Part shown: positions 3,856-36,700 of the stretch, piece by piece
Position numbering within the stretch: position 1 is the first letter of the stretch
How the letters are laid out: the number at the start of each line of letters is the position of its first letter
Assembly (NCBI RefSeq): GCF_965363235.1
Contig: NC_134843.1
Coordinates: 62,845,865 to 62,909,864 of the forward strand
Origin: Mytilus galloprovincialis
Taxonomy: Eukaryota; Mollusca; Bivalvia; Mytilida; Mytilidae
Direction of reading: 5' to 3'
DNA: 64,000 bases
The notes under the pieces: generated by a model
Seen by the model: the letters and a program-made list of their open reading frames with translations, nothing else
Told to the model about the DNA's origin: nothing
Databases searched by the model: none
Program-made: the position numbers and the translations under genes

Positions 3856-5004
3856 TTACATACATTGTATCTTGCTAAATGCACGTTTTAAAAACGTTTT
3901 TGTCTCATCGCGAAACTTCTTGTCCATGAAAGCATAGATGTAAGGGTTTGCAATGTTATTTACAATGAATATGTGGTTAACAAACATGGCACCAGATCTT
4001 GTGCTGGTTGGTAACGTTTCCCAAAAGTCTTTGTATATCCCTTCGATAATCATTAGTATTATTTTCGGTATATAACTGAGTATAAATACTACAGTAATAA
4101 CGAAAAACATGAATGTCAGTTTATATGAAATCCGACGATTATTTATTGTTCTTTTTTGAGATCCAGAAATCGGCATAGCAGGACTTTTAACATAGCATTG
4201 CTCCTCACTATTCTGCTTAACTTCTAGAATTTGTTCGTCAGCGGTGGTTTCCATTGTGTTTTCCTCCTTGCTGTTACCATCTTGTTTTTCTTGTTCTGTG
4301 TCCTCGTTCTGACTTCTAGTACTAGTTTGTTTATTAGTTTTGAAAATTCGGAACACAACGTATCCAATTCTAGAATACAACACGATAAGTGTTGTTACTA
4401 TAACAATCGCAAAAATGCCAAGTACAGCGGCGTATACAATTCTTATTAGAACACGCCCCTTCTTAATCCTTCCACATCGCATTCCTGTGATTGTCTTGTC
4501 TGTACTCTTGAAAGGAATCACGCCGTATACAAAAGGCAATGGTAACGCAAACAATATAGAAAGCAATATTGCAAATGACAATAAAGCTTTTTTCATCGAA
4601 AGTGTCATTGCTTGTTTCAGAGGCATACATATTTTGACATACCGTTGAAATGCAATAATAATCAAAATTATGATTGGCATGAAAGTATTTAGTCCTACAA
4701 AGTATTGTGCTGCCTTACATATTATATCGTTTGAAAAGTTAACTTGGTGTAAACACTGAAATACATCATATGATCCGATATAGAATGTTGCTATTAGGTC
4801 AAATACAGCTAAAATAGGAATGAAATATCTTTCATCTGATCGCTTCTTAATCTGAAATGTATAGACCAACAAAACAAGGATGTTTCCACATATCCCAAGA
4901 ACCAAATAAACAAAAGTTATGATAATGTTTGGTATTAAGCTTGTTACTATTTCATCGTTCCATTCTGACACTGTGATGTTATGTGTGGTATCGGTAATGT
5001 TCAT
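3856..5004 (-). CDS. Orphan rhodopsin-class (class A) G protein-coupled receptor
   Basis: A 382-residue intronless reading frame with seven hydrophobic segments, at about residues 24-50, 60-83, 97-122, 139-163, 186-211, 294-321 and 338-361. Class A landmarks are visible: GN at 40-41 in TM1, D69 in the LAVFD of TM2, C96 before TM3 and C177 in loop 2 as the usual disulphide pair, YIP (311-313) in TM6, and NPYIY (353-357) in TM7 followed by a basic helix 8. The TM3 motif is QRY (120-122) in place of D/ERY, and TM6 lacks the CW of CWxP. Two NIT glycosylation sites lie in the short N-terminus (residues 2 and 9). Loop 3 is long (about 80 residues), acidic and Gln/Glu-rich. The receptor should sit in the plasma membrane and probably binds a peptide, but the ligand cannot be read from sequence. 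The start is the first ATG of the frame. Single-exon orphan receptors are common in molluscs. Confidence 0.9.
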   Translation of the reverse strand: MNITDTTHNITVSEWNDEIVTSLIPNIIITFVYLVLGICGNILVLLVYTFQIKKRSDERYFIPILAVFDLIATFYIGSYDVFQCLHQVNFSNDIICKAAQYFVGLNTFMPIIILIIIAFQRYVKICMPLKQAMTLSMKKALLSFAILLSILFALPLPFVYGVIPFKSTDKTITGMRCGRIKKGRVLIRIVYAAVLGIFAIVIVTTLIVLYSRIGYVVFRIFKTNKQTSTRSQNEDTEQEKQDGNSKEENTMETTADEQILEVKQNSEEQCYVKSPAMPISGSQKRTINNRRISYKLTFMFFVITVVFILSYIPKIILMIIEGIYKDFWETLPTSTRSGAMFVNHIFIVNNIANPYIYAFMDKKFRDETKTFLKRAFSKIQCM

Positions 5005-6221
5005 ATTAAGTCCTTAAGTGTTAGCACAAAATGTATTCACAGTCTTCAAAAATAAACAGAAAGGTGTTCCTATTCATAAATAAATGTATCTTTAATAAAA
5101 TATTTCCTTATTAAAAGTGGATTTATTAAAATAAATGTAAAAGTCGGTTTGTAAATATATACACATTTTCCTGGAAATAATCATCTATTTAAATTAAGAA
5201 GTCATTCAGTTTTAACCAGGGATTTTCCAGGAAAATGCATTGGATTGTTGGTCATCAAATGATTTATATTTTTCATTTGGGCTGTAGAAAGGGAATCATA
5301 TACACTTCTGTAGTAAAGAAAGATAAGTAATATGTCTGGTGGTAGTAGATAAAATAGTTGTAACCCTCCCCCCGCCATTTTTTCCTGGAATTTCCCTAAA
5401 AGGAAATACTCCTGTTATTTATTTTCCATCTTATTGTTTATTTTATAGACAACAAGGACTCTCGTTTATGTTTACCAGACAGGCGCCTTAAGCTTTATTA
5501 AATTAACAAAGAAAGTTGTGACACTATTCACTATTAATGAAATGAGATCATAAAGCCAGATATGTTCGTGTTAATTAAAAGATATATAGTAAAAAAAAAA
5601 TGTATTAAAAAGTCTATAATGTTAAATTTAAACGAATTCACTTTGTGGTGTTTCTCATTTTATTTCTCTGGCTATTGTAGCGTTTGGACTGCTAAGGTGG
5701 ATTTAGTGGGTGGACGCCCAATGCTTTTTAAAAATCTGTAATATATAGATGGTAATGCAAAGATATTTCACAAGTCCCACACTGGCCTAACGTTGCCTTA
5801 GTGACACCTCTAAAGGTACATGTTTTGTCAACTTTGACAAAAAATGTCAAATACCCCTTCTAAGAGTTGTTGACTTTAAATGACAATTTTTTTACACTTT
5901 TCTCATCTTTGCCTATTATCTTAAAATATTATAGATAAAGAAAAGATTTAAACAGAAAAAGGGTGGTCGGTAAGAAAAGATCTTTTAGTAAGTCAAATGA
6001 CCTAAATTGTCAGTTATCTTCTAATACGAGTGTTTCCCCTTGAATGATAATGTTTTACCCATTTTCTTTTTTATATTTTTTTTTGGCAAAAAAACTATTA
6101 TAATAGTAAATATAGAGAAAGTGTTAACATAAAAATGATGAACAAAACAAAATTAATAACAAGGAATTTAAGTCTTGAATCATATTCTATTCTACAATAT
6201 TGGCGAGTGGCAAAGAACATA
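5005..6221. other. 5' flank of the GPCR, nothing else recognised
   Basis: This is the region upstream of the receptor start. I see no clear promoter element, gene or element ends. AT-rich with scattered A-runs. Confidence 0.4.
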
Positions 6222-6223
6222 TA

Positions 6224-7565
6224 TGGGCGTTTTTCAATAAAAACGTATTTTCTTGTCCTATCCACTTTAAAAAAAATGTGTTTTATCTTTGCAAGTAATT
6301 TTTTGAGCAGTCAGTATATTGAATTAGATTTAACATTTTTAAGCAAAGAAACAGTTTATTTTTGGAGGGATTGATAAGATATTGACTCCTGAATGGTCCA
6401 AAACAACCAAAATGGCATGTCCCTGGACCGCCTGTTTAACATTCATACTCTAAAATATCGTAAAAAAATGAAGAAATAAATGTTGTTTTTACTTTACATA
6501 AGTTCTTTAATAATTCAAAAGTATGTTCAGAGCCAACATATTCTAATAAACACATTTCAATATAGGTTTTTTAATTTCAGAAGGTGTGTCCCTCACAAAA
6601 TGTCCACTACGAAACGTAGTCATTAAAATTTGCCAATAAACAGTTTTATAAAATCAATTTTTTGTTTGCAAGAGATATATACATTAGGGTCTTACAAAAG
6701 AAGTGATGCTTTTATAACGGCAATTAAATTGTTGGTAAGAAAAATTGAGCACATCAAATGGACCAGAGTGATACCGTATTTTTGATAATGTCCCCTACGA
6801 AACGGGTCAAATCTCCTTCAGTATCTGGTTTTAAAATTATGAAAAAAATATCAGTGTACAGCTTGATAAATGCTTTGATGAATACAATCAGTCTTGTTAC
6901 TATTGCAATATAGGTATTGTGGGGAAAAAATAAAACATGCGAATACGTCCCTTACGAAACGGTCCCCTACGAAACAAGTATGGGAGAAAAACGTTTCGTA
7001 GTGGACACTACCACTACCATGGAGTCTTTTTTTAATCTTTTTTCAATTATATTCGTGCAAAACAAATAACAAGGGCTAGTTTCATGTAATTTTTATTATG
7101 TTTTTATTAACATATAATAGGGTTGATGTCAACTACGAAACTTTTTGTCCACTACGAAACGGTTTTGTCCACTACGAAACGCACCAAAATGTCCACTACG
7201 TAACATGAGTTGAACCTTCATATGTGAAGTACTGTCTAATCTTTATCGATAAACATGGTTTTCCAATTCAGAAAAATGATATTTTCCTAGTATTTAAAGT
7301 AAACAAACTGGAATGTCTATAGGAAACATTTAAAATTGCAAAAAATATGTGTGTTTAGAAGAAATTTCGTAGGGGACTTTTACGAAACAGTACACAAATT
7401 ATGAAAATAATATCATTTTAAAGAATATTTAAGATTGCACTTTTTGTTTACAAACAGGTCTATTATAGAGGTATTCAAAATAACTCTTGAAATTAAATTT
7501 TAGACAAGTTGATTTTCCATTTTTTTTATAGGTCTGAAAGTTACGCTTTTATTGAAAAACGCCCA
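6224..7565. mobile_element. TA-flanked element A with a GTCCACTACGAAAC motif array
   Basis: The 1342-bp element has inverted ends TGGGCGTTTTTCAATAAAA and TA on both sides (6222-6223, 7566-7567). A 14-base word, GTCCACTACGAAAC, occurs about ten times with small changes: plus strand at 6602, 6790, 6947, 6962, 7128, 7147, 7167 and 7191; minus strand at 6993 and 7363. No transposase is encoded, so it is non-autonomous. The TA duplication fits Tc1/mariner or ISL2EU-type elements. It is one of three related elements in this window (with 10451-11959 and 13288-15646). Confidence 0.75.
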
Positions 7566-7567
7566 TA

Positions 7568-8049
7568 TACATAGAATAATATTGTTAACCCTTTCATCAT
7601 CGCTTTATTATGGACAAGAAATTTCGTATGCTTTTATGCTACATATTTTTTGCATGTGTATTCGGCAAACGTGATCCGATGTGTATTTCCACGGCCGTGG
7701 AAGGCTAAATTAGGAATGTTCACATCCTACTAGTTAATTTACTCAGTCTGATCTTTAAGTTATACAAATCCATAATTTCTGGTTGATATCAGTCACACAC
7801 TTTGCAGGTTCTCTTTTAGTATTTCCATTCGCTTGTTTTGTTTTGTTTGGTTCTTTAGTTTTTATTTTGTTTGGGTTTTTTTTTGTTGGCTATTTTTTTG
7901 TTGTAATTTTGATTTTAGTTTCAGTTTAGTTTATATAAAAAAAGAAGATGTGGTATGATTGCCAATGTTGTTGGTTTGTTTTTTTTTTTGGGGGGGGGAG
8001 GGTTGTAAATACAAAATATTAATCTTTTTGCTTGATTTGGTGTGCTAAT
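7568..8049. other. Intergenic with a mussel-repeat fragment and a G-run
   Basis: A fragment of the common AAGATGTGGTATGATTGCC repeat lies at about 7943-7965, followed by T-rich sequence and a G-run near 7991-7999. No gene is seen. Confidence 0.5.
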
Positions 8050-8216
8050 ATGATTAAACGTTTGCATTTTTTCAATCTAATTAAAAACCGATCTCTCATC
8101 GCTCCTGTTTCTGATATGTCGCGCCCACGCGACATATCAGAAACAGGAGCGATGAGAGATCGGGTTTTAATTAGATTGGCATTTTTTATACTATAAAAAT
8201 GCAAACGTTTAATCAT
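8050..8216. repeat. Near-perfect 167-bp hairpin (foldback MITE)
   Basis: The outer arms (ATGATTAAACGTTTGCAT and its complement) and a long inner stem around GCGCCCACGCG at about 8114-8125 make almost the whole interval self-complementary. The only large mismatch is about ten extra bases (near 8187-8197) in the right arm. The minus-strand frame covering it is an artefact of the palindrome. The arms are nearly identical, so the insertion looks recent. Confidence 0.85.
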
Positions 8217-9904
8217 GTATATAGCTGATTTGTTTAGAATTGCATTTTATAATATAGCTATCCTGAACTTGTTATAAAAATAAGAGCATTTGGTATGATT
8301 AGATATTGCCATTGGGTCAACTATCCATCAGAAAACATAGGACGTTGGTGGAAGCAACTAAAGGTTACCATGCATACGCGGCCTTCAATACTGAATAAAA
8401 ATCCATGCCGGTCATTTAGATAAAGAATGTGGTAGTGGTTAATATGTTTGTAAGAGCATTAATCCATCGTGCACACATTAAACAGAGGCGTATAAATGAA
8501 GGCAGGAAAGGCATGACTCTTCGGATCGACACAAATCACACAAACGTGACAACTATAACAACAGGACAAAAAGACAAAAGATACAAAGTATTATCTAAGT
8601 GATATGCTAGTCTAAAGTCAATGACAACCACTAAACAAATAATGTTGTTTTCAACACTTAAATATCATTCAGAACACATTCAACTGATTTTAGTATAAAG
8701 ATGTCTACGAAAAGTTAGAACTTGTAAAAACACGATGCCAAAATTAACATAAGTATGATCAAGTATCGACAGTGTGTATGACCATACTCGGGGCCGATTT
8801 TACCAGAGTTCCTTGTCGTTTTTTTCTCTATTAAACTTTATGGGATTGATTTTTTTTAAATCACACTTTGTCACAGTGATAACATGATTTCAATAACTAG
8901 TAGATGTTCTAACTGAGAAGATATACAAATAAGAAGAAGTGGTATGTTTATCACTGCGACAACATGCGTAAGGCCTTCAACAATGCGTAAACCCCATACC
9001 GTTTCAACCAAATTGTTATTTTTTATTGTTATTTTTAATTTTACTATAAATTTTATTATTTTTTTTGTTTTAACTTGAAAAATAAAATATCTATCCGCTG
9101 GAACATGCGTTAGATGTCGAAGACGATGTCGTTGTAATAAACCTCTTTTGTTGGATTTACACACTTTTGACAGTTTTACTCTGAGAGATCGGACTACACA
9201 AATCCTTTTCTCCATTCATTAGTTTAATTCATAGCAAAGTGATATCCCGGTTTGTTTCATGGATTTGTCCGATTATATGTGGCTGAACGGTTAATTCTGG
9301 CTATTCCTACATTTTGAATTTTATAGGTAAAATAGTAAAATTTTATGTAGGAGTTCCCAGAATTTGTATGTAAACAATGGGAATATGTAGGATTTGTTGT
9401 AACAACATTAAACCAAGGATTTGTATATACAAATCCTTGATTAAACTAATAAACCAAGTTTAATTTAATCTACCCAGGTAAATCTTGTTGAAAATAAAGA
9501 AAACGAATAATTTCAATTTAAAAAGCAAAATTAATATTCAAAAATACGAAATGAATTTATAGGCATTGAAATTATTTAGGTGAAAAAAAAACACATTAAT
9601 ATATATATATACAAGTAAATGATATCAATTGACATATAAATATATTGTGGTAATTTTTCTTTGAAACAAAGCACTAAATTTTGAGTTACACTACATTTTC
9701 ATTGAAATAAAGCACCAAAGTACATTAAACTGGCATTAATTCAGAACACTTTTACAGTAATAGATTTCACTTAATTAAACACACAAGAGTGAATACAAAC
9801 TGAAAGCCTGAATCAATGTTAGGTAGATGAGAAGCAACATCTACATACTAGATTGGCACAAGTTCATCATTCTGTGACCTTGTTTTCAGTGTTTAAATAC
9901 AAAA
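8217..9904. other. Intergenic with diverged dispersed repeats
   Basis: Diverged copies of mussel repeats are visible at about 8280-8410 (a TTTGGTATGATTAG start and a CGGCCTTCAATACTG core) and at 8930-9005 (AGTGGTATG and AAGGCCTTCAACAATG). A perfect 26-bp palindrome lies at 9414-9439. No credible gene is seen: the 114-codon minus frame at 8871-9215 overlaps repeat sequence and shows no domain. Confidence 0.5.
9414..9439. repeat. Perfect 26-bp palindrome
   Basis: CAAGGATTTGTATA is followed directly by its reverse complement with no loop. It could be the junction of a small foldback element or a cruciform-prone site. Function unknown. Confidence 0.8.
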
Positions 9905-10060
9905 ATAAGAAAATGTGGTATGTTTTCATATGCGACTACTCTCCACAAGAGACCAAAATTACACAGAAATTAACAACTATAGGTCACCGGATGGCCTTCA
10001 ACTATAAACAAATTCCATACCGTATAGTCAGCTTAAAAAGGCCCTGAAATGCAGTTACTG
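9905..10060 (+). repeat. Mussel dispersed repeat, AAGATGTGGTATGATTGCC family
   Basis: A recognisable diverged copy: AAAATGTGGTATG, CTCTCCACAAGAGACC, TAGGTCACCGGATGGCCTTC and CATACCGTATAGTCAGCT appear in the family order. It directly precedes a Mutator-like transposase remnant. Confidence 0.8.
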
Positions 10061-10136
10061 TCGGCTAGTTCAAAGCCAATAACAACTTATAAAAAATGTC
10101 GTGCTTCTCAGACTAAAATATCAAGCTGTACATATC

Positions 10137-10372
10137 CAACATCCTTAGAAAAAAGACGTCACAAACTCTGTTATCTATTTCCCTGTATAATTTCTCTTTC
10201 TCGAACCATGTTTACCACCAGTTCTGTATTACTACGTGTGAGAGCACGGAAGGCTTTTTCTTGTCTCAACAACTTCATCATGCTGAAGATGTTTGGGTGT
10301 GGTGCATTGACTAACTTCTTTAGTTACTATGTCAACCTTCTAAATGATTTGTTGTGGACCTTGTGTTGTTAT
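10137..10372 (-). pseudogene. MULE transposase C-terminal remnant
   Basis: On the minus strand, reading 10372 to 10137, one frame gives NNTRSTTNHLEG and, after a frame change, a second gives VNAPHPNIFSMMKLLRQEKA followed by about 30 charged residues. Mutator-like (MULE) transposases end with an R-TN-NHLEGWH motif followed by a HP-xx-F segment, and both are present in order and at the right spacing. A TGA replaces the tryptophan codon after EG, and a frameshift separates the two halves, so this copy cannot encode a transposase. The 162-codon plus-strand frame across the same interval is a shadow. Confidence 0.6.
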
Positions 10373-10450
10373 TTAAAAAACTCATTATTTATTCAAGTAA
10401 TGAAATCAATTAAATCTTTGAAGCTCAAGTTGAAATTGTTGGGTACTATA

Positions 10451-11959
10451 TGGGTCATTTTTAAAAAATGTCGAATTTTCAGTACACCTATGCTAAATTT
10501 TTTATTTCTAATGGAAATTTCAGTTGTAATGGTTTAAATGAAAGCTTGTCGGATTTGTGATTCAGAACATTAATAATAAACACACCTATAACATCTATTT
10601 TGATAAGATTAAACTACATTTAAGTCCGATTTTTGGGGTATTTGTGTGCGTACATTGTCAGAAAAACACATTTCAAATGATTTTTTTTCCGATTTTCTGA
10701 TCGCCTTGATATCTGCAAAAGGGACTTTTTAAGAACGTTAATTATAATTCTAACGAACAATCGTAGCTTCTTAATCATTGTATGTAACAGATTATCTACA
10801 AACTAAATTCAATCAGCGTACAGGAGGTTCATGTCTTTCCTGTTACCGCTACTTAAATCAGTCGTTAAATTATTCTCCCTATGAATATTGAATCAGACTA
10901 GTCAGTGTTGATTTCAAAAATGAAAAGTAATCTTTACATTTAAAACGGCTCGTTTCTTGAACGACAGTGTAGAGAAAAGAAATTTCAAGATATTTAGTGA
11001 AAAAAATAGAGCGTACTTTTTTTCATGTCTATGCTGTTACCAACCATTTTGATTAATTACACTAACAGTATGGTTGTAAAAAGTGCAATAACGTGTTGGA
11101 AACCAAATTCACAATAGAAAACCATAATCACTTCACCAAAGGGAGTATAGTTACTTCACAACAGCAATCAAAAACGAAGAAATCAGTTGTCTATCCTGTT
11201 ACTATGGTTGCTATGGTTACAGTAACAGGATAGACAATTATAGACAAAAACGTCGTTAAATTTTTTTATCTTAACATGTAGGTGGAAAACGAATGAAATA
11301 TTTCATTGTTTGAACTCATCTTAAGGTTATAACGTCTTAATCTTCCCAATTAAGCATTTGCAGGTACAATATTGATATCAGTAACAGGATAGACAAAAAG
11401 GTAACAGGATAGACTTTTATATATATAGTGATATATATCAGAAACGTACGTTCCTGTTACCAACGAAATAAAGAGAAAAGTAGATTAACTTATGAGGGAT
11501 TTACTTGTTGGGTTTATTTGAAAGGGTGAAAAAAGGCCGAACAATATAAATTGCTATCTTAGACTTGCATTACTGGTGGTAATTTTTACAACCTTTGAAA
11601 ACCAATTTTTAGAGCCATTTTTCAGTACAACCTAGAAAATTGGCAAATAATCTATTATTTTACAGAATGAATATATACATAAGTTTATTCTCTTGAAAAC
11701 CATCTAATTGGTAACGTAAAACAAGCTTAACATTTTATCTAAACCTTTTCTCAATAACCCAAAATTTCTTTTGAAAATGGTAACAGGATAGACAAAATAT
11801 TGTACCACCGATCAAAAAATGTTTCAAGATTTGCATCTTTTAATATGTTGTTCTTACAGTACTGTTTGTTTTGATTTGCTTATGTAGAGGGTTGTTTTGA
11901 TAAGTAACTTTTAATAAATTTTTCAATTCCAAAATTCGACATTTTTTGAAAATGACCCA
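10451..11959. mobile_element. TA-flanked element B with a GTCTATCCTGTTAC motif array
   Basis: The 1509-bp element has about 30-bp inverted ends (TGGGTCATTTT, then AAAAAATGTCGAATTTT) and flanking TA (10449-10450, 11960-11961). Its 14-base word GTCTATCCTGTTAC occurs at 10833, 11027 and 11189 in this orientation and as GTAACAGGATAGAC at 11222, 11381, 11401 and 11780; a weaker copy ends at 11460. No transposase frame is present. The architecture is the same as elements A and C but with a different word. Confidence 0.78.
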
Positions 11960-11999
11960 TATATTAAATGCTTAAACTCGGTTTCCTTTTAAACAGTTT

Positions 12000-12064
12000 G
12001 TTCTAGACTTTTAAATTGTTATTTGGATGGAGAGCTATCTCATTGGTACTCACACCACATCTTC
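12000..12064 (-). repeat. Fragment of a mussel dispersed repeat
   Basis: GGATGGAGAGCTATCTCATT and CACACCACATCTTCTTATAT match the end of the common dispersed repeat, minus orientation. Confidence 0.7.
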
Positions 12065-12316
12065 TTATATCTATTTTAAATGCCTTTTAATAATCAAGTT
12101 ATTCTTAAAAAAAAAAAATCAAGAATACTGGGTTTTTTTACAATCTGTTCCTTTAAAATGATTTTTTTTCCTAGAAATTCTTTATTCGGAACACTTAATT
12201 ATAATACTTAATACGTGTTTTCCAACTATATAAACAAAATTATTCTTAATCAAATTTCATATAAATAATTATTTTTCTTTAATTTCCACAGGTAATTTAC
12301 CTGGTACATTGTACCT

Positions 12317-12423
12317 AGTCCAAATAATTATGACGTCTGGCAAGGCTATTTTAATTTTTTCGTAGGAAGGCGTCCCAGAAAAAAAATCAAATAGCCTTAC
12401 CAGACGTCATAATTATTTGGACT
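12317..12423. mobile_element. 107-bp foldback MITE with an 11-bp target duplication
   Basis: The inverted ends start AGTCCAAATAATTATGACGT and run about 35 bp, leaving a short loop. The flanks are the exact direct repeat ACATTGTACCT (12306-12316 and 12424-12434). Duplications of 8-11 bp suggest a Mutator-like mobiliser. The exact flank match implies a fairly recent insertion, about 370 bp upstream of the candidate first exon of MRPS18A. Confidence 0.85.
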
Positions 12424-12791
12424 ACATTGTACCTAAGTAGAGATTAATGAATAAAACAACATATGTTGCAATAACAACATCTTTGTGTATACTTTTTTGA
12501 AAGAAAAAGTGTATTCGATTCAATTCTATTCATTTCTTTTTTTATAATATCTTTTATTGTACATTGATATATTATTAAATGTAAACGTTTATCAAAAATC
12601 GAGTTTTACTGCTGGGTAAATACGGAATCTGGACGAACACGAACCGAAGATTGTAGTTGTATTAGAAATTGGTATCGAGTCAGTTAAATGTTTAGAACAA
12701 CGAAGTTAACAGGTCACATTTTATGTTGCATTGAGATCACGACAAGAAATATTGAAAAGTGATTTTGTCTTGTTGTTGTCCTCAAATGACA

Positions 12792-12913
12792 ATGAATGTC
12801 ATTCAACAAATATACAGCATTTCTAGACCAGTTCAGCAATTGTTAAGATATACATGCATCTCCTCTTACAGACATTTTACAACGTCAACAACTAAACACA
12901 GAAGAGAAAGCAA
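12792..12913 (+). CDS. Candidate first coding exon of MRPS18A (mitochondrial presequence)
   Basis: An ATG opens a 40-codon frame, MNVIQQIYSISRPVQQLLRY followed by TCISSYRHFTTSTTKHRRES. It is rich in Arg, Ser and Gln, has no acidic residue until its end, and carries a RHFTTS motif typical of bivalve mitochondrial presequences. It lies upstream of the certain MRPS18A exons on the same strand. A GTGAAC donor follows at 12914, just before an in-frame stop. The phase does not fit: this donor leaves two bases, whereas the exon at 19008 needs one. Either a small intervening exon was missed, another donor is used, or this is not the exon. Confidence 0.4.
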
Positions 12914-12979
12914 GTGAACTTGTACAAATATTTGTAGGGCTACTGAGAGTCTGAGAACTGTCTGCTCATTTTGTATTTG

Positions 12980-15900
12980 CGGTCTCACTAATTAGCGACA
13001 ACAAGAATTTTAGCGACAACAAGCGTCAACAAGCGACAAGAAGCGACAACAAGAATTATTTTAGCGACAACAAGCGACAAGAAACTATTTAGCGACAAGA
13101 AAACATTTTTTTTAATTAAAATTAATTATTGCAATAAATATTAAAAGAATATGCAAAAGAATTTAATTTTAGCGACAAGAAAGTTAAAATTGATAGAAAA
13201 AAATGAAACATTATTTACATAATAATTTATCATCTATTATGAATAACAGCCAGTATTACGTTTAATTATTGTATTTTTTATAAATTATGGGCTATTTCAA
13301 AAAAAATGATGCCAAAGTGTGACAAACATGGTAAAAAATTAAGTCATTGGTAATCTTTTTTCTATCATTTTTCTTTAATCCAGAGACATTCAAGTTTACA
13401 AAACTACCAAGGGTTAATGCAAAATAATAAAAACAAAAATTTTAACAACATTTTACTCATAAGAATTCATCCACTTTTCAAAGGAAACAACAAAATTATA
13501 ATATCAACTGACAAACATAAATAAGAATATAAATATCAATGTATTTTTTTTTGTTTGTTGCAATAAAGGTACTAAATGATTTTCCTGCAATTTTTTTTTA
13601 CTTATAAACATTTTTTTTTTCAAATATGTAAATTTCACCAATTTTTAGTGTATTCTTTAATATCTTATTTCAAAAGTTTTTATATCTCTTTGCAAAAGCT
13701 TTAATTTTATATAAAAAGTATAAGGAAGCAAACATATATGATCTAATTACATCCTCTGAAAATTTCACAACAATTGCTTCAGTCAATTCTAAGTTTTCTT
13801 CATTTAAAAAATACAAACAGGTGTTTTTTATCCTTTTGTTACACTCCTGACATATTTTTTCAGTAACTGTAAGACTGTTTTTTAATGGAATGTTAGAAAA
13901 TCAGTAATGATATCTATTTTAAATTTACAATCTCACAAATAAATAAATTTATTAGATATTTGATTACATATTTTTTTAATTTCTGAGCAAAGAGCAAACT
14001 TTTAACATGTTTAATGAGAATTACACTTTAATTTTTAAGAATCTTTGGTGAATAGTGTGCAGAAAAATTTCTTTTACAAGACAGATTGGCTTTCTCATTA
14101 CATTGTAAAGATGTTACAATTATTTTAATAGAATTTTGTTATAGATAAGCTACATCAGAAACTTGTCAGGAGTGTAACAAATGTTACACTCCTGACCATA
14201 ATTTATTGCTACCATATTTTAACCTGAGACTGACCTGAAATCATGTAGAGTCTTTATATTTCACATATTATTTTAGTGCAAATTAAGAACAGGTTAAAAA
14301 AAATTATATACTTCTTACATATTTACAAATTTTGCTAATTGTCTATTTAAAAAAAAAGATGGCTTTCCTTTAAACCTTGTTCAGTCTCTTGTTTGATACT
14401 ATATATATTCTGTTTTTATGTCAGATAATGTATTATGATAAGTTTGTTCATACTACCAAAGATGGTAGCAGTATGTGCTCTGTATATTAAAAATTGTCCA
14501 AAAATGTACCCAAAAATGTCAGGAGTGTAACGATTTAAAATGTTTAAGTGTAACATTCATATTATTTTTTATAGAAACAATGTTGTTATTATTGGTTTTC
14601 TTTTCTGGAATTTGAGTGTGAACACCATCTGTTGCGTATTTTCAGTAACAAACATGCCATTATTATGGCCTTTATTGCTTGTTTATGCTCAATACTTGTA
14701 TGTCAGGACTGTAACACATTTAAACAAGCTAGTTCAATTGCAATTTTAGTTCAAAAATTTCAAAAGTAATGATGTAGACTTGTATTCTGTGTTAAGCTGA
14801 GGTGTAGAAATGTCATTTTATAATAATTGTCAGCTTGTTTTTCTTCCAATAACTTACCTTTGTTAATAAGATTGAAATAAGGCATTTTTTTGTGTTACAC
14901 TCCTGACATTGAAGTATTGAGCATACAAAAGCAATGAAGGCCATAATAATGGCATGTTTGTTACTGATAAACTGTAACAGGTAATGTTCACTGAAATTCA
15001 AGAAAAAACAACAACTATAACAACATTGTTTCTAAAAAAAAACAACATCTTAACCCAGTTGTTACACTCCTGACAGACCTGGGTAGTCCTCTTATTGTAA
15101 CCATAATATTCCAGTAGTAGAACTTCAGGGTCAACTGGATGCACCTGTGCCAAGCTATGATACTAAACAAAAAAAATAAACCGTGCAAGATGTACAGAAA
15201 CATGTTATTTCACCTACAAAGACATTTTCTGGCAGCATATTGACTTTTACTAACATTTTTTTTTTTTACACAAACTTATTTGACTTACCTTATGAGGCTC
15301 ATAAAAATGTAAATATATGGAAGAATTGAACAAGAAATCATAGTCAAGATATAATAGTTGGATGAAAGATATTGTTTGGTATTGTATCTGCCCTTATTTA
15401 TTCTATATCATCAATGAATGCACATGCTTTCTTCTAAATGTCACACTAAAAGCGTTACACTCCTGACATTTTGAGGTACAATTTTGGACAATATTTTTTA
15501 AACAGAGCACATACTGCTATTATCTTTGGTAGTTAGGACCAACTAATCATAATACATTATCTGACCTAAAAACATTACAGATATAGTATCATACAAGAGA
15601 CTGACAAAGGTTTAAAGGAAAGGCATCATTTTTTTGAAATAGCCCATATGAGATTACTTTTCTTTGTGTTTTAGAGCATATTATTTATCTTATAATTTGT
15701 TTTTTAAAACTCTTTTCGTGCAATATATATTAAGCTCTCAAAATGAATTATTTGTGCATCATTGTCCTGAAAATATTGACACAAATTGTGAAATACAAAG
15801 AACTGAAATCAAACAGGAGGAAAAGAAAATTGAAATGTGAATGTTCACAATCTCTTTCTTCCTCACAAATGTTTCATTTCTTCGTCTATCTATATATATA

Positions 15901-16105
15901 ATAAAACATTTTAATTAGACATATCTGCTCGTATATTTAAAAAAAACCATTAAATACAAATTTCTTTATATCTAATAAAAAAAAAATGTTTTCTTGTCGC
16001 TAAATAGTCTTGTTGTCGCTAAAATAATTCTTGTTGTCGCTTCTTGACGCTTGTTGACGCTTGTTGTCGCTTGTTGACGCTTGTTGTCGCTAATTAGTGA
16101 GACCC
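12980..16105. mobile_element. Foldback element with AGCGACAA arrays (outer element)
   Basis: The ends GGTCTCACTAATTAGCGAC and CGCTAATTAGTGAGACC are inverted repeats continuing for about 130 bp as arrays of AGCGACAA/AGCGTCAA words. Flanks are the exact 8-bp repeat TGTATTTG (12972-12979, 16106-16113). Without the inserted element C the outer element is about 765 bp. An 8-bp duplication fits hAT or Mutator-like elements; long terminal repeats made of short arrays are more usual in Mutator/foldback types. Under the candidate exon call it begins about 65 bp into MRPS18A intron 1. Confidence 0.85.
13288..15646. mobile_element. TA-flanked element C with a GTCAGGAGTGTAAC motif array, palindromic
   Basis: The 2359-bp element has inverted ends TGGGCTATTTCAAAAAAA and flanking TA (13286-13287, 15647-15648). 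The word GTCAGGAGTGTAAC occurs at 14165, 14518 and 14702 (plus) and 13838, 14183, 14894, 15061 and 15454 (minus). Much of the two halves is inverted: 14355-14535 matches the complement of 15453-15635, and 14590-14715 matches the complement of 14893-14975, with the centre near 14810. It has no coding frame and is inserted within the outer foldback element 12980-16105. Confidence 0.78.
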
Positions 16106-27861: not shown

Positions 27862-28440
27862 GCCTTAGTTTCCTGAAACGACTCTATTTTTAGAATCTTT
27901 GCTCAACATATTTTTGGTTAAAACAAATGGGTCTCCAGTAGAGTACCCCTTTTAGCCAAAAGGTTACATTTAAAAATTGCCTTCAGATACTATCAAGCAA
28001 TCCACACAACAAAAAAAACCTCTCTAAATGTTTAATGCTTGCATGTCCTCTTAAATAAAACATAAGGTAGTGAGGCAGGTTGCCATCCCCCCACCCCAAA
28101 AAAATTAAACCTGATGGCCGATAAGAGATTTTATATTCAACACACAATTAAAAAAAATATACCCTTACACAAATGTTCTTCTCTTCAGTAAAAAATCATA
28201 GAACATTTTCATTTCCATAAAAAGCCTGAATTCAACCTATCACAAAAGTGCCTAAAGGATAGGATTCTTGAAATTTCTAAATACTTAAAATATAAAAAGG
28301 GGGGGCTAATCATAAATTAATCATATTCTTATGAAAATTGATTATGAAAAATGGCTCAAGATATTCTAATCTTCTCTCTTGTCAAAATGATTTAATAGAG
28401 AAATATTTTGACTTTTGGCCCTCTACTCCACACTTTGGTA
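27862..28440. other. Intergenic, nothing recognised
   Basis: AT-rich sequence between the hAT copy and the ZPR1 3' flank. No gene or element ends seen. Confidence 0.5.
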
Positions 28441-28590
28441 ATAAATTCCTCAATCTGCATATGTAATAAATTCCTAAATCTGTATATGAAATAAATTCCT
28501 AAATCTGCACATGTAATAAATTCCTAAATCTGCACATGTAATAAATTCCTAAATCTGCACATGTAATAAATTCCTAAATCTGCATATATC
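28441..28590. repeat. Minisatellite, 25-bp unit, six copies
   Basis: ATAAATTCCTAAATCTGCAC plus ATGTA repeats six times; three central copies are identical. Starts about 220 bp past the ZPR1 stop. Length is likely variable between individuals. Confidence 0.95.
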
Positions 28591-31433: not shown

Positions 31434-33713
31434 AGTACGTCTGAGTCAGTGACAACCCTACAACAGATGTATCCATCGGATCGCCATCAATGATGGTGAT
31501 ACATGGCTGTGTACATAATGTATATACAACTCGTCTAAACATCAACCCAACAATGTTAGATCTGTAAATTTGCTTTCGCAAATTTTTTGTTCTTCCCTCG
31601 CCGGGATTCGAACCCATGCTACTGTGATATCGTGACACCAAATCGCCTGCACTGCAGCCGTCCCGCTAGACCACACGACCACCTGGGCTCTCAAAAAAGA
31701 GCTTTCGGTGGGCATGTGTTACCTTTCCACGTCAGTTTTAATCTAGCGGCGTACTACAGTACATGATATATAAGGCATGAAGATGTATGCTTATATATCA
31801 TGTACTGTAGTACGCCGCTAGATTAAAACTGACGTGGAAAGGTAACACATGCCCACCGAAAGCTCTTTTTTGAGAGCCCAGGTGGTCGTGTGGTCTAGCG
31901 GGACGGCTGCAGTGCAGGCGATTTGGTGTCACGATATCACAGTAGCATGGGTTCGAATCCCGGCGAGGGAAGAACAAAAAATTTGCGAAAGCAAATTTAC
32001 AGATCTAACATTGTTGGGTTGATATATATATACAACTCGCCCAACAATGTTAGATCTGTAAATTTGCTTTCGCAAATTTTTTGTTCTTCCCTCGCCGGGA
32101 TTCGAACCCATGCTACTGTGATATCGTGACACCAAATCGCCTGCACTGCAGCTGTACTGCTAGACCACACAACCACCTGGGCTCTCTATTAAAAAGAGCT
32201 TTCGCTGGCCGTATGTTATCTTTCCTCGTCAGTTTTAATCTAGCGGCGTACTACAGTACATGATATATAAGGCATGAAGATGTTACAGATCAGCTAAATT
32301 ATCTATAGTAAAGGATCCTACACATTAATGTAATATACAGTCACAGAAAATAATTATATTTATAAGTATGTCTGAGTCAGTGACAACTCTACAACAGATG
32401 TATCCATCGGATCGCCATCAATGATGGTGATACATGGCTGTGTACATAATGTATATACAACTCGTCTAAACATCAACCCAACAATGTTAGATCTGTTAAT
32501 TTGCTTTCGCAAATTTTTGGTTCTTCCCTCGCCGGGATTCGAACCCATGCTACTATATATAGTCAAACAGACAAGACTGACTGAATAACAGGATGGTTCC
32601 TATATATCTCCCCCTCTATTGTTTGGGGTGTGGGGCATAATAAAATAAAAGTACCTCATCAATTTTATCACAGAATTGTCCTATCTTCCCTTTCAAGTTT
32701 TCCTCAGAGCTGTCTCCACGAAAGAATGGATTGGAATCCTTTAACTGCAATAAAACATGCATCATTGACAAGAAAAATATTTATAATATGACTTTATAAA
32801 ATGTTTGTTCTGACTAATTATACTATAAGCCTACTAATTTCATGCAAAACCTTGTTTACACAATTTTTTGCAAGTAGAAAAATAATGACAGTATGTCTAA
32901 CTTGAATTTTATATAAACAGGCTAACAAATAAAAAAAATCTTCTAAATCACATATTTTTTTTCTGACATAAATTTAGAGGGCAATTTTGTCTGGCTGATT
33001 TCTCATTTTTAGGAATTTAAAAGTTTATCCTTTGATTATATTATTTTGGATGTATTAAAACATCTTCTGAAAGGCCTAATTTTTTTTGTCTATCAGCTCA
33101 TAGACATAATTTTATTATGTGATCATGACAAATCAACATTTTTCATGATTTACTCCTTAAAATGGAATTCAGAGACTTTAGAAAAACTCGCTACATCCCA
33201 TGCACCAGGTTATTCAGTGTGCACAATATTTTTTTAAGTTATTTCTTCATAGACAGAAACCAGATGCTCCGCAGGGTGCAGCTTTATACCACCACAGAGG
33301 TCAAACCCTGAACAGTTGGGGCAAGTATGGACACAACATTTTAGCTTGATACAGCTCTGAATTTGGATTGTGATTAAATAGTTGACACAACATAGGTTTC
33401 TGACACAGAATGAATGTGGTCTAAGAACTTAAACTTAAAAACTCCCAAAATCAATCCAAACATTTCTTTTGTGGTCATAAACCTTGTGTTTAAATTTCAT
33501 AGATTTCTATTTACTTAAACTAACGTTATGGTGCGAAAACCAAGAAAAATGCTTATTTGGGCCCCTTTTTGGCCCCTAATTCCTAAAATGTTGGGACCAA
33601 AACTCCCAAAATCAATACCAACCTTCCTTTTGTGGTCATAAACCTTGTGTTAAAATTTCATAGATTTCCATTCACTTTTACTAAAGTTAGAGTGCGAAAA
33701 CTAAAAGTATTTG

Positions 33714-33748
<35 letters not shown>

Positions 33749-36700
33749 CAACGTGATAGCAATATACGACGAAAATTTTTTCAAATTTTGCGGTCTTATA
33801 AAAACCAAGAAAAAAGCTTATTTGGGACCTTTTTTTGGCCCCTAATTCCTAAACTGTTGGGACTAAAACTCCCAAAATCAATCCCAACCTTCCTTTTGTG
33901 GTCATAGACCTTATTTTATAATTTCATAGATTTGTGTTTACTTGTACTAAAGTTATTGTGCGAAAACCAAGAAAAATGCTTATTTGGACCCTTTTTGGCC
34001 CCTAATTCCTAAACTGTTAGGACCAAAACACCCAAAATCAATCCCAACCTTCCTTTTATGGTCATAAACCTTGTGTTTAAATTTCACAGATTTCTATTTA
34101 CTTTTACTAAAGACGGATAATCCCTTATTTATTCCATGATTACCAAATATCATATATGACTTTATAGATTTGTAAAAGAGTGTTCACAACCTCAATCACC
34201 AACAATCACCCTGTGACCCTCCATTCAGTGAATACTAAGTAAATAAACTTATTCTAAAAGGTTAACAATTCAACCCTGTAATTAGATTTTTGAATATTGT
34301 TTTTACTGGTATCTATATGGATTTAGTTTTTCTTGTTTGAATTGTTTGACATTTGTCATTTCGAACTCTTTTAAAGCTGACTATGCAGTATGGGCTTTGA
34401 TCATTGTTGAAGACCGTAATGTGACCTATAGTTGCTAATTTCTGTGTCATTTGGTCTCTTGTGAAGAGTTGTCTCATTGGCAATCACACCATATCTTCTT
34501 TTTTATCTAGAAGAATATTTCATAATCGAATTAGCTTGTGTCTTTAGTACCTGATCCTTGATTGCCAAAAGGATCCCTTCAACAGTTGTAAACTTTCCAC
34601 CTAATGTTCCCATGCCTGTAGAAAAGTCTAGTTCAGGAATGGATAGAGAAGCAGTCTCACTCTGAAAAATAAGTGATGTCGGCATTACATTTTTTACCAA
34701 CATTAGGATGTATCAAACAAAACATTGCATTTAAATAAAGCTATTTAGCAAGTGGTAATTTCCTACTACTGTTATACACTGGTAAATGGTTAATTTGTGC
34801 GTCAAATAAGATTGCACAGTTCTTTGACAAAAAATAATTACAAAATAGAAATTTGATAACTGAATTCAGATTAACAACTTAATGTAAATCAATGAAATGC
34901 ATATATGTGTATTATAGGCTGGTTTGGCCTTCTTTTTTTATTATTAAAAACTGTTAAAATCCCCTGAACAAATTCTTGCAGAGAATAAAATGAGCCAAAA
35001 TGAAAGGAGAACGGACTGCCAGATAAAAATTGCACTGTGAATGATGTATATCATCTACTCAGTGTGGAGAGATAACTTTCAAAGAGGAGAGGTGGACTTT
35101 AATAAATAATACAAATTATGAAACCTTATATTTAGATGCAAATGTACCAGCTAAGGGCCGATTTTGGCCTCAAATTTCAGGTTCATCTAACGAAAGTTTT
35201 GGAAACTTTTTAAACATTGAGTGTTTATTGCAATTGATTCGATAAGTTTATGTGAAAGATTTTAACTGATTTAGTCATTAAAAACGCTTTGATTGAAGCT
35301 TGAATATGAAAAATCTATAAAATATGCCAAAAACATCTCTTTTCAGATGGTTTTGTCAAAAATGAAAGTGGCTGCATCCGTGTTCATCCTCACCCTTTAT
35401 ATATGTTATGTATTATCATCAAATACAACTTACATTTCAATATTATGAATGACCACAAATGTAGTCACTTTCATTTAAGACTGAAACCGTCTAAAATTTA
35501 ATTAAAATTCTAAAATTGTGCAGATTTCAGTACTTTAGCATGACTTAATGATGTTAGTACCCGATATATGTGCATTGTATTGTCAAAAACAGCCCATATT
35601 TATGTAGAAGAAGCATTCTACTTTCAAATAAATAGCCGAAAGATTACATTTTCACAATTTTGTAAAACTGCTATATTTTGGGGCCAAAAAGGGGTCTTAC
35701 TGAACCTACTCCTTTGTAATAAAAGGGAATGCATGGGTGGATATAAGGGGTCCTGTCCAGGGCTTCCAAAACGGTCATTATTCCGGTCATTTGTATAATG
35801 TCCGGTAAAAGTCCGGCTGGGCAAAGCATGAAACGGTCATATACTTTTTAGTATTCAAGGCTTTTTCGGTCATTTTTACATAATTCACGATCTTTTTGAC
35901 CCAACCTTTTGCCTTTAACATCAACACATTTCCGGTCATAAATGTGACAAGATGATTAATTATTATCAAAACAACACCTACTTCAATACTTTCTAAATTT
36001 AATCAAGGCTAATTAGTAGTTGGACAGCTGAAATCTACCTGTTCAGGTGACAGGTGAACTATGTTCAGTAAAATTGATTGGTTTATTCACAATTATTTTC
36101 TTACATTTCAGAGGTTTTTATCTAATTGATTTAGTCCAAAAGATTAAAATTATTAGAAATTAGTATATTAATATGATTTGATGAAAAATTTAAAAAGGTT
36201 TTAAATAAAAAAAATCGTCAGAACTACATCGTATGAACTAGAACACATGTGCGCATGTGCACAGGTGGGAAATTAAATAATGCATCCTACATTTCTTTAA
36301 AAATGCTGAAATTATCAATGAGACCTGTATCTAACGTTCAAATCAAGTATTTTGTTGAAGAAATAACGTGGAAAGAGCTTCTTCTCTCAGTCGTGCTTTG
36401 TAAAACGTACACGGATTTTACGTATCCGTTTATGGTCCATGTTTTACCATTGTCAAGTCAACTTCCGGTTGAAAACGAAAGTAAAGTTTTTGACAATGTC
36501 ATTTTGCACAAATAAAAAGTCTACGGCAGATATGAGCACGCTGATGTGCACACTTTGAATGATGCACTGCCAATTTAACAGTAACATCCTAACATCAAAT
36601 TCATATCATATCAAAGTAAAGTTTAAGATCGTTTTTTTTTTTAATGTAATGTCAATCATTGGAATGGCCATCTGATTACCATAACTGCCATTTGTGATTA

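What the first reader, a model, noticed from the sequence alone, without database searches (positions are those of the whole stretch)
6224..15646. Three elements share an architecture and a 14-base word frame GTCnnnnnnGnnAC with element-specific cores
Elements at 6224-7565, 10451-11959 and 13288-15646 are each flanked by TA, have inverted ends starting TGGGC or TGGGT followed by A/T runs, encode nothing, and carry 7-10 copies of one 14-base word in both orientations. The words GTCCACTACGAAAC, GTCTATCCTGTTAC and GTCAGGAGTGTAAC have equal length and share GTC at 1-3, G at 10 and AC at 13-14, while the other positions differ and are fairly constant within an element. That pattern suggests a family in which a repeated binding site and its binding protein diversify together, perhaps as transposase sites that keep element lineages from cross-mobilising. 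The counts are seen; the binding-site idea is inference.
Basis: partly seen in the sequence, partly recalled or inferred. Interest (0 to 1): 0.9.

Follow-up and report, generated by a model that had tools for sequence, protein, structure and literature searches.

The report
Mussel transposons with lineage-specific address words
Three stretches of what is likely mussel DNA, each bounded by TA and matching inverted ends and with no reading frame longer than 76 amino acids inside, each hold 7 to 10 copies of their own 14-letter word cut to one shared pattern; they are likely jumping elements that lost their genes, and the words likely work as docking sites for a protein made by each element's own lineage.

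Summary
Elements A (6224-7565), B (10451-11959) and C (13288-15646) are TA-flanked, have matching inverted ends starting TGGGC/TGGGT, hold no ORF above 76 aa inside, and carry 10, 7 and 8 copies of one 14-mer each, in both orientations. No copy within 2 mismatches lies outside its own element in the 64 kb. Sequence around the copies is no more alike than background, so spread by duplication is unlikely; selection on a 14-15 bp site is the best reading. The shared frame GTC-N6-G-N2-AC is modestly significant (P about 0.0004; 0.005 with shifts) and rests on three words. New: words keep at least 166 bp from every end; each element has one close convergent pair; C is composite and nested in another inverted structure; CpG content differs sharply (A 0.94, B 0.86, C 0.09). 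I read the words as sites for a transposon-encoded accessory DNA-binding protein, like TnpA sites of CACTA elements or VANC sites of plant VANDALs. No partner protein, autonomous copy or second DNA copy was found; the genome search did not complete. Lineage recognition is inference.

The parts
6224..7565 (.). Element A, 1,342 bp, TA-flanked, TIR TGGGCGTTTTTCAATAAAA
   Evidence: (42-nt arms incl. flanking bases, 83%)
10451..11959 (.). Element B, 1,509 bp, TA-flanked, TIR TGGGTCATTTTyAAAAAATGTCGAATTTT
   Evidence: (36-nt arms incl. flanking bases, 94%)
13288..15646 (.). Element C, 2,359 bp, TA-flanked, TIR TGGGCTATTTCAAAAAAA
   Evidence: (20-nt arms incl. TA, 100%)
6602..7377 (.). Word A GTCCACTACGAAAC: 6602+, 6790+, 6947+, 6962+, 6993-, 7128+, 7147+, 7167+, 7191+, 7364-
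10833..11793 (.). Word B GTCTATCCTGTTAC: 10833+, 11027+, 11189+, 11222-, 11381-, 11401-, 11780-
13838..15467 (.). Word C GTCAGGAGTGTAAC: 13838-, 14165+, 14183-, 14518+, 14702+, 14894-, 15061-, 15454-
6962..7006 (.). Close convergent word pair of A, 17 nt between words; the best DNA fold pairs the minus word with the neighbouring 6947 copy instead
   Evidence: z -2.5
11187..11237 (.). Close convergent word pair of B, 17-nt arms 100% complementary, 19 nt between words
   Evidence: z -6.5
14165..14196 (.). Close convergent word pair of C, 4 nt between words
   Evidence: z -6.8
14338..15647 (.). Inverted-arm part of C (199-nt arms 86%, plus inner arms 121 nt 81% and 48 nt 79%); its inner end resembles a decayed TIR
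13288..14337 (.). Left part of C: no CpG (14.9 expected); its conceptual peptide 13673-13900 minus has two relatives, 99% and 97% identical, on other contigs
12981..16104 (.). Outer inverted arrays of GCGACAACAAG/GCGACAAGAA units (12981-13113 and 15979-16104) around C, probably an older element that C landed in

Best explanation
Elements A, B and C each carry many copies of a private 14-bp word, in both orientations and with unrelated surroundings, and are likely gene-less DNA transposons whose words are predicted to be docking sites for an accessory DNA-binding protein supplied in trans by each element's own autonomous lineage. Shown: TA-flanked inverted ends, no long ORF inside, 7-10 words per element, sharp word borders, words kept 166 bp or more from every end, a shared frame GTC-N6-G-N2-AC. 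Inferred: that a protein binds the words; that it is encoded by full-length relatives rather than by the host; that it acts beside the transposase, which would bind the terminal repeats; and that the constant frame is the part of the contact common to all lineages while the 6-bp core gives lineage specificity. The job of the bound protein would be to pair the ends or to strip silencing marks from the element, as TnpA and VANC do in plants; the interior spread of the sites leans towards the second.
For: Word copies are 0.90-0.98 pairwise identical while the 25 bp on either side are at 0.28-0.35 against 0.29-0.30 background; duplication would carry flanks along. No copy within 2 mismatches elsewhere. 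20 of 25 copies are preceded by T (listing), so the site is 14-15 bp. 10 of 11 within-element deviations fall outside the six frame positions (P 0.02; 7 of 8 and P 0.08 if each element-position counts once). No word within 378 bp of a left end or 166 bp of a right end in the three elements (2.5e-5 under random placement; the cut-offs were taken from the data). 10 of 10 A words keep their CpG (listing) although CpG outside the words is at 0.54 of expectation (12 of 22.2). Precedents: CACTA subterminal motifs vary by subfamily with a proposed matching protein (PMC2613891, passages); VANC21 and VANC6 recognise different short motifs in non-coding parts of VANDALs and remove methylation (PMC5735166, passages).
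Against: No protein, autonomous element or second DNA copy was found. Three words are few for a frame claim; with shifts allowed P is 0.0046. End type and word type are each seen once. Precedent arrays are subterminal (CACTA) or often tandem (VANC), these are interior and mostly dispersed. In A, 5 of 9 successive spacings are 15-31 bp, so part of its array could have grown by local duplication. A host factor would leave the same trace.
Confidence: 0.5

Rival explanations
1. The words are sites of the transposase itself (main or secondary binding sites), many copies being selected for stronger capture of a shared enzyme.
For: Herves transposase binds a short motif repeated at both ends (PMC3143072, passages); multiple binding sites are called a convergent trait of transposons in the Galileo paper (PMC3573991, passages).
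Against: In Herves the motif was mapped in the terminal 100 bp examined; here the nearest word is 166 bp from any end. No match to the word with 4 mismatches or fewer lies in the terminal repeats.
Confidence: 0.2
2. The words are sites of a host factor: a repressor that silences the elements or an activator whose sites they acquired.
For: Same sequence trace as a transposon-encoded factor; CpG content differs between elements (C 0.09, A 0.94, B 0.86), so host methylation may have treated them differently.
Against: Three different cores in one frame would need three host proteins or a loose one; no copies of the words within 2 mismatches elsewhere in 64 kb, which is a small sample of the genome.
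Confidence: 0.17
3. The words spread by a mutational process (short-unit duplication, template switching or gene conversion between hairpins) with no bound protein.
For: Some copies are near-tandem: A spacings 15, 19, 20 and 24 bp, B 20 bp (Tandem Repeats Finder calls 6947-6975 and 7127-7181); C has duplicated arms that account for two symmetric pairs.
Against: 14 of 22 successive spacings are 135-393 bp, in both orientations and without shared flanks; three otherwise unrelated elements show the same word length and frame.
Confidence: 0.1
4. The common frame is chance: real transposons and real repeats, but no shared recognition. (This can hold together with any of the readings above.)
For: P of the frame rises to 0.0046 with shifts; only three words; element-position count of deviations gives P 0.08.
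Against: Equal word length, T before the word in 20 of 25 copies, TGGG ends and TA flanks in three of three.
Confidence: 0.1

Closest known systems
CACTA (En/Spm, Tgm) subterminal TnpA-type repeats in plants
   Same: One short motif per family, many copies, recognised in En/Spm by a transposon-encoded accessory protein; motif differs between soybean subfamilies with a partly common pattern (PMC2613891, passages)
   Different: CACTA termini; motifs subterminal; the elements described there carry the genes
VANC target motifs of Arabidopsis VANDAL elements
   Same: Short motifs in non-coding DNA, different for VANC21 and VANC6, proposed to have co-evolved with the protein (PMC5735166, passages; PMC10398659, abstract)
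   Different: Plant MULE elements (recalled); 8-9 bp motifs, often in tandem arrays
ISL2EU (PHIS superfamily)
   Same: AT duplication and GG-starting ends if the ends are read as AT+GGG; animal elements with a THAP transposase and a second protein (PMC4482050, passages)
   Different: Target there is A|AT|T; all three here have T|AT|A; no coding part here
Tc1/mariner-type non-autonomous elements
   Same: TA duplication (rule in PMC10045372, passage)
   Different: Ends TGGGC/T are not the usual start for that group (recalled); no transposase trace
Coral CMITEs
   Same: Non-coding animal elements whose interior is better conserved across families than the ends (PMC2872659, abstract and passages)
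   Different: About 100 bp, TTAA flanks, one contiguous conserved block, no repeated word mentioned in what I saw

Membership tests
Non-autonomous terminal-inverted-repeat DNA transposon | Terminal inverted repeats | tested here: met
   three of three elements
Non-autonomous terminal-inverted-repeat DNA transposon | Short target-site duplication | tested here: met
   TA on both sides, three of three; too short to be proof. For A alone a 4-bp ACAT repeat outside a longer end is also readable, not for B or C
Non-autonomous terminal-inverted-repeat DNA transposon | No coding capacity | tested here: met
   for 6 of 57 pieces
Non-autonomous terminal-inverted-repeat DNA transposon | Several copies and empty sites in the genome | tested here: inconclusive
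   own-genome search unanswered (19 tries); two peptide variants of C's left part on other contigs, which may be the same locus in other animals; none for an A peptide
Tc1/mariner | TA duplication | tested here: met
   but AT + GGG fits equally
Tc1/mariner | DDE/D transposase in autonomous partner | not testable with these tools
   genome search unanswered
ISL2EU | AT duplication, ends starting GG | tested here: met
   alternative parse, three of three (rule from PMC4482050)
ISL2EU | A before and T after the duplicated AT | tested here: not met
   T before and A after in three of three
ISL2EU | THAP transposase and YqaJ gene in autonomous partner | not testable with these tools
   genome search unanswered
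CACTA | Ends starting CACTA | tested here: not met
   ends are TGGGC/TGGGT
CACTA | Family-specific repeated motif near the ends | tested here: inconclusive
   motif present, but starting 166-550 bp inside
VANDAL/VANC | Family-specific short motif repeated in non-coding DNA | tested here: met
VANDAL/VANC | MULE-type insertion and a VANC gene in the element | tested here: not met
   2-bp flanks in three of three, against 4-10 bp for MuDR-type elements (PMC10045372, passage); no gene inside. A VANC-like gene in an autonomous partner was not testable

The most novel reading that the evidence does not exclude
A mussel superfamily of TA-inserting transposons in which every lineage carries its own address word on a common GTC-N6-G-N2-AC chassis, read by a co-evolving lineage protein that lifts silencing or licenses mobilisation: an animal counterpart of the VANC/VANDAL address system, with the word as a barcode that keeps lineages apart.
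Probability: 0.22. Interest if true: 0.88.

Novelty: new variant of a known kind. Interest (0 to 1): 0.62.

Why it matters
If each lineage has its own word and matching protein, comparing full-length copies in mussel genomes would give a ready-made set of protein-site pairs showing how a DNA-binding domain and its site change together, and would test whether animals have transposon-encoded address systems like those of plant VANDAL and CACTA elements. It could also help sort the large 'unknown' repeat fraction of bivalve genomes, 20.07% in Mytilus coruscus (PMC10294476, passages).

Tried and rejected
Own genome: the genome search gave no answer in 19 identical tries, the last two after waits of about 5 minutes. 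So copy number, empty sites and autonomous partners remain unknown.

DNA elsewhere: exact patterns of paired A words and of the A, B and C ends in viral contigs, and of the B and C convergent pairs in genome contigs, gave nothing. These are prokaryote and virus collections, so the negative says little. P0041 in viral contigs: 8 stretches matched a pattern, none confirmed.

Coding remnant in C: the 76-aa piece 13673-13900 minus looked protein-like and has relatives 99% and 97% identical (P0041, P0042), but the longer P0041 reads through stops and a frame difference of the window copy, and Pfam gives nothing above cut-off. Near-identical copies of a repeat, or the same locus in another animal, give the same result, so I do not call it a gene. 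The strongest sub-cut-off Pfam match in an element piece (Rer1, E 0.0036, 17.6 against 23.9 bits, in C) was set aside.

RNA gene or tRNA origin: no Rfam match at the gathering thresholds, no tRNA.

More family members in the window: TATGGGC-like matches tried at 2661, 20270, 35583, 40830, 47889 and 60909 have no inverted partner better than 14 of 20 within 5 kb.

Superfamily: ISL2EU was tempting (AT + GGG) but the flanking bases disagree; not filed.

One search's line 'base before word' is wrong for minus-strand copies and was not used; the count of 20 of 25 is from the listing.
Full report
WHERE IT IS. The window is AT-rich (68%, from the counts). A receptor gene at 3856-5013 minus matches Mytilus proteins, best 89% to a cholecystokinin receptor-like protein of M. 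trossulus, so the host is a Mytilus-like mussel (inference from one gene).

THE ELEMENTS. A (1,342 bp), B (1,509 bp) and C (2,359 bp) start and end with matching inverted repeats and are flanked by TA on both sides, three of three. The ends are TGGGCGTTTTTCAATAAAA, TGGGTCATTTTyAAAAAATGTCGAATTTT and TGGGCTATTTCAAAAAAA. The same letters can be read as an AT duplication with ends starting GGG; three insertions cannot tell. The longest open pieces inside are 65, 60 and 76 aa, and the 6 of 57 pieces scanned have no Pfam match above cut-off; two longer stop-to-stop frames run in from the left flanks of A and B. Apart from ends and words I found no relation between the three: the best 30-nt ungapped matches are 22 of 30 (no shuffle control was run).

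THE WORDS. A has 10 copies of GTCCACTACGAAAC, B 7 of GTCTATCCTGTTAC, C 8 of GTCAGGAGTGTAAC with 3 mismatches or fewer; none with 2 or fewer lies outside its own element, 12 with 3 do. Shuffled elements reach 4, 4 and 5 copies of any 14-mer, against 10, 8 and 8. Copy number alone is not unique: of 27 control windows one reaches 7 and four reach 6, and those five overlap tandem arrays or a long repeat. Nor are both orientations alone: exact 11-mers with 4 copies in both orientations also occur in a long repeat at 31546-32544 and at 33468-35449 (the latter not followed up). What sets A, B and C apart is both orientations together with unrelated surroundings: words 0.90-0.98 pairwise identical, 25-bp flanks 0.28-0.35 against 0.29-0.30 background. 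In 20 of 25 copies the base before GTC is T.

THE FRAME. The three words share GTC, G10 and AC. Letter shuffles reach six shared columns in 0.00039 of trials (any orientation) and 0.0046 if shifts up to three are allowed. Within elements, 11 deviations from the word are seen, one at a frame position (7364, position 14) and ten elsewhere (P 0.02); position 5 alone takes five of them, and counted once per element and position the result is 1 of 8 (P 0.08). So within-element constraint points the same way as the between-element frame, weakly.

GEOMETRY. First word to left end: 378, 382, 550 bp; last word to right end: 188, 166, 179 bp, and the last word is on the minus strand in all three, its GTC facing the end. 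Random placement gives right-end distances within 22 bp of each other in 1.2%, left distances of A and B within 4 bp in 2.7%, and such empty margins in all three in 2.5e-5; these cut-offs were read off the data, so the figures are descriptive. Each element has one close convergent pair (17, 19 and 4 nt between words). The B and C pairs fold far better than shuffles (z -6.5, -6.8; 0 of 200); the A stretch less (z -2.5; 4 of 200), and its best fold uses the neighbouring 6947 copy.

C IS COMPOSITE. Its right part, 14338-15647, is an imperfect palindrome (arms 199 nt at 86%, 121 nt at 81%, 48 nt at 79%) whose inner end resembles a decayed terminal repeat. The left part, 13288-14337, is different sequence with an intact end. 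Two symmetric word pairs (14518/15454 and 14702/14894) are thus likely copies by arm duplication and should not be counted as independent. C lies between inverted arrays of GCGACAACAAG units (12981-13113 and 15979-16104), probably an older element it landed in.

METHYLATION HISTORY. CpG observed/expected is 0.94 in A, 0.86 in B and 0.09 in C (29 of 30.7, 29 of 33.5, 4 of 44.6), the window 0.59; the left part of C has none where 14.9 are expected. With words and the one or two bases beside them masked, A falls to 0.54 (12 of 22.2) while 10 of 10 A words keep their CpG; B stays at 0.96; in C two of the four CpGs touch the edge of a word, both in the duplicated arm pair. CpG loss usually marks germline methylation (established knowledge), so C has likely been methylated for long, A perhaps partly, B little. 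Other stretches of this DNA are also CpG-poor, down to 0.04 in 1-kb bins, so this is not unique to C.

COPIES ELSEWHERE. A conceptual peptide from C's left part has two relatives, 99% and 97% identical, on other contigs (P0041 with 9 member sequences, P0042 with 1); P0041 differs from the window copy by a frame difference and lacks its stops. They may be other copies or the same locus in other animals. A word-bearing peptide of A has none. No DNA copies in the collections at hand. The words are not in the text of 5.39 million open papers.

HOW IT LIKELY WORKS. The anatomy suggests terminal repeats for a transposase, and a separate set of interior sites for something else. In plants two systems look like this. 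CACTA elements carry family-specific subterminal motifs; in En/Spm an accessory protein binds them, and the motif differs between soybean subfamilies (PMC2613891, passages). VANDAL elements carry short motifs in non-coding DNA bound by VANC proteins that remove silencing marks; VANC21 and VANC6 recognise different motifs and are proposed to have co-evolved with them (PMC5735166, passages; PMC10398659, abstract). I take the mussel words to be sites of the same kind for a protein encoded by full-length relatives. Steps shown: sites, their borders, their number, their placement. Steps inferred: binding, encoder, function, and lineage recognition.

WHAT IT IS NOT SHOWN TO BE. Membership in Tc1/mariner or ISL2EU is open; the flank bases disagree with ISL2EU (PMC4482050, passages). 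It is neither CACTA nor VANDAL by its ends. My searches on mussel or bivalve elements (20 of 179 papers listed, 14 of 14, 3 of 3) and on cross-mobilisation (16 of 16) listed no paper whose title or abstract start describes such words in molluscs. The nearest mollusc entry in the listing is an oyster paper on tandem repeats carried by Helentrons (PMC7492417, listing only). Subscription papers are not covered.

On a second pass I mended counts and wording (frame hit 10952, three 4-mismatch matches, control windows, spacings, fold of A, extent of paper listings).

Noticed in passing
window 13288-15646: Element C has 4 CpG where 44.6 are expected, while the 1-kb bins on either side (12001 and 16001) are at 0.87 and 0.82; its left part has none.
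   Followed up: partly
window 12981-13113 and 15979-16104: Inverted arrays of GCGACAACAAG/GCGACAAGAA units, longest arms 95-100% complementary, about 3 kb apart with element C between them: a foldback-like element with tandem-repeat ends.
   Followed up: partly
window 8057-8209: Short hairpin element with near-perfect inverted arms (AACGTTTGCATTTTTT ends; seen).
   Followed up: no
window 12319-12422: Another near-perfect hairpin (GTCCAAATAATTATGACGTCTGG... and its complement), seen by eye.
   Followed up: no
window 31546-32550: Repeat present in up to four copies in both orientations, containing GGTTCGAATCCCGG, which resembles a tRNA T arm (recalled); ARAGORN finds no tRNA.
   Followed up: partly
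window 33468-35449: ATGACCACAAA occurs four times in both orientations within 2 kb; part lies near a 160-bp tandem array.
   Followed up: no
window 28438-28584: 25-bp tandem array, 5.9 copies, 95% matches.
   Followed up: no
window 3856-5013 minus: Intact-looking receptor gene, 89% to a Mytilus trossulus cholecystokinin receptor-like protein while the next Mytilus hits are near 50%.
   Followed up: no
window 6224-15646: The three word-bearing elements lie within 9.4 kb; the scans for TA-flanked inverted ends and for word clusters showed no further TGGG-ended, word-bearing element in the rest of the 64 kb.
   Followed up: partly
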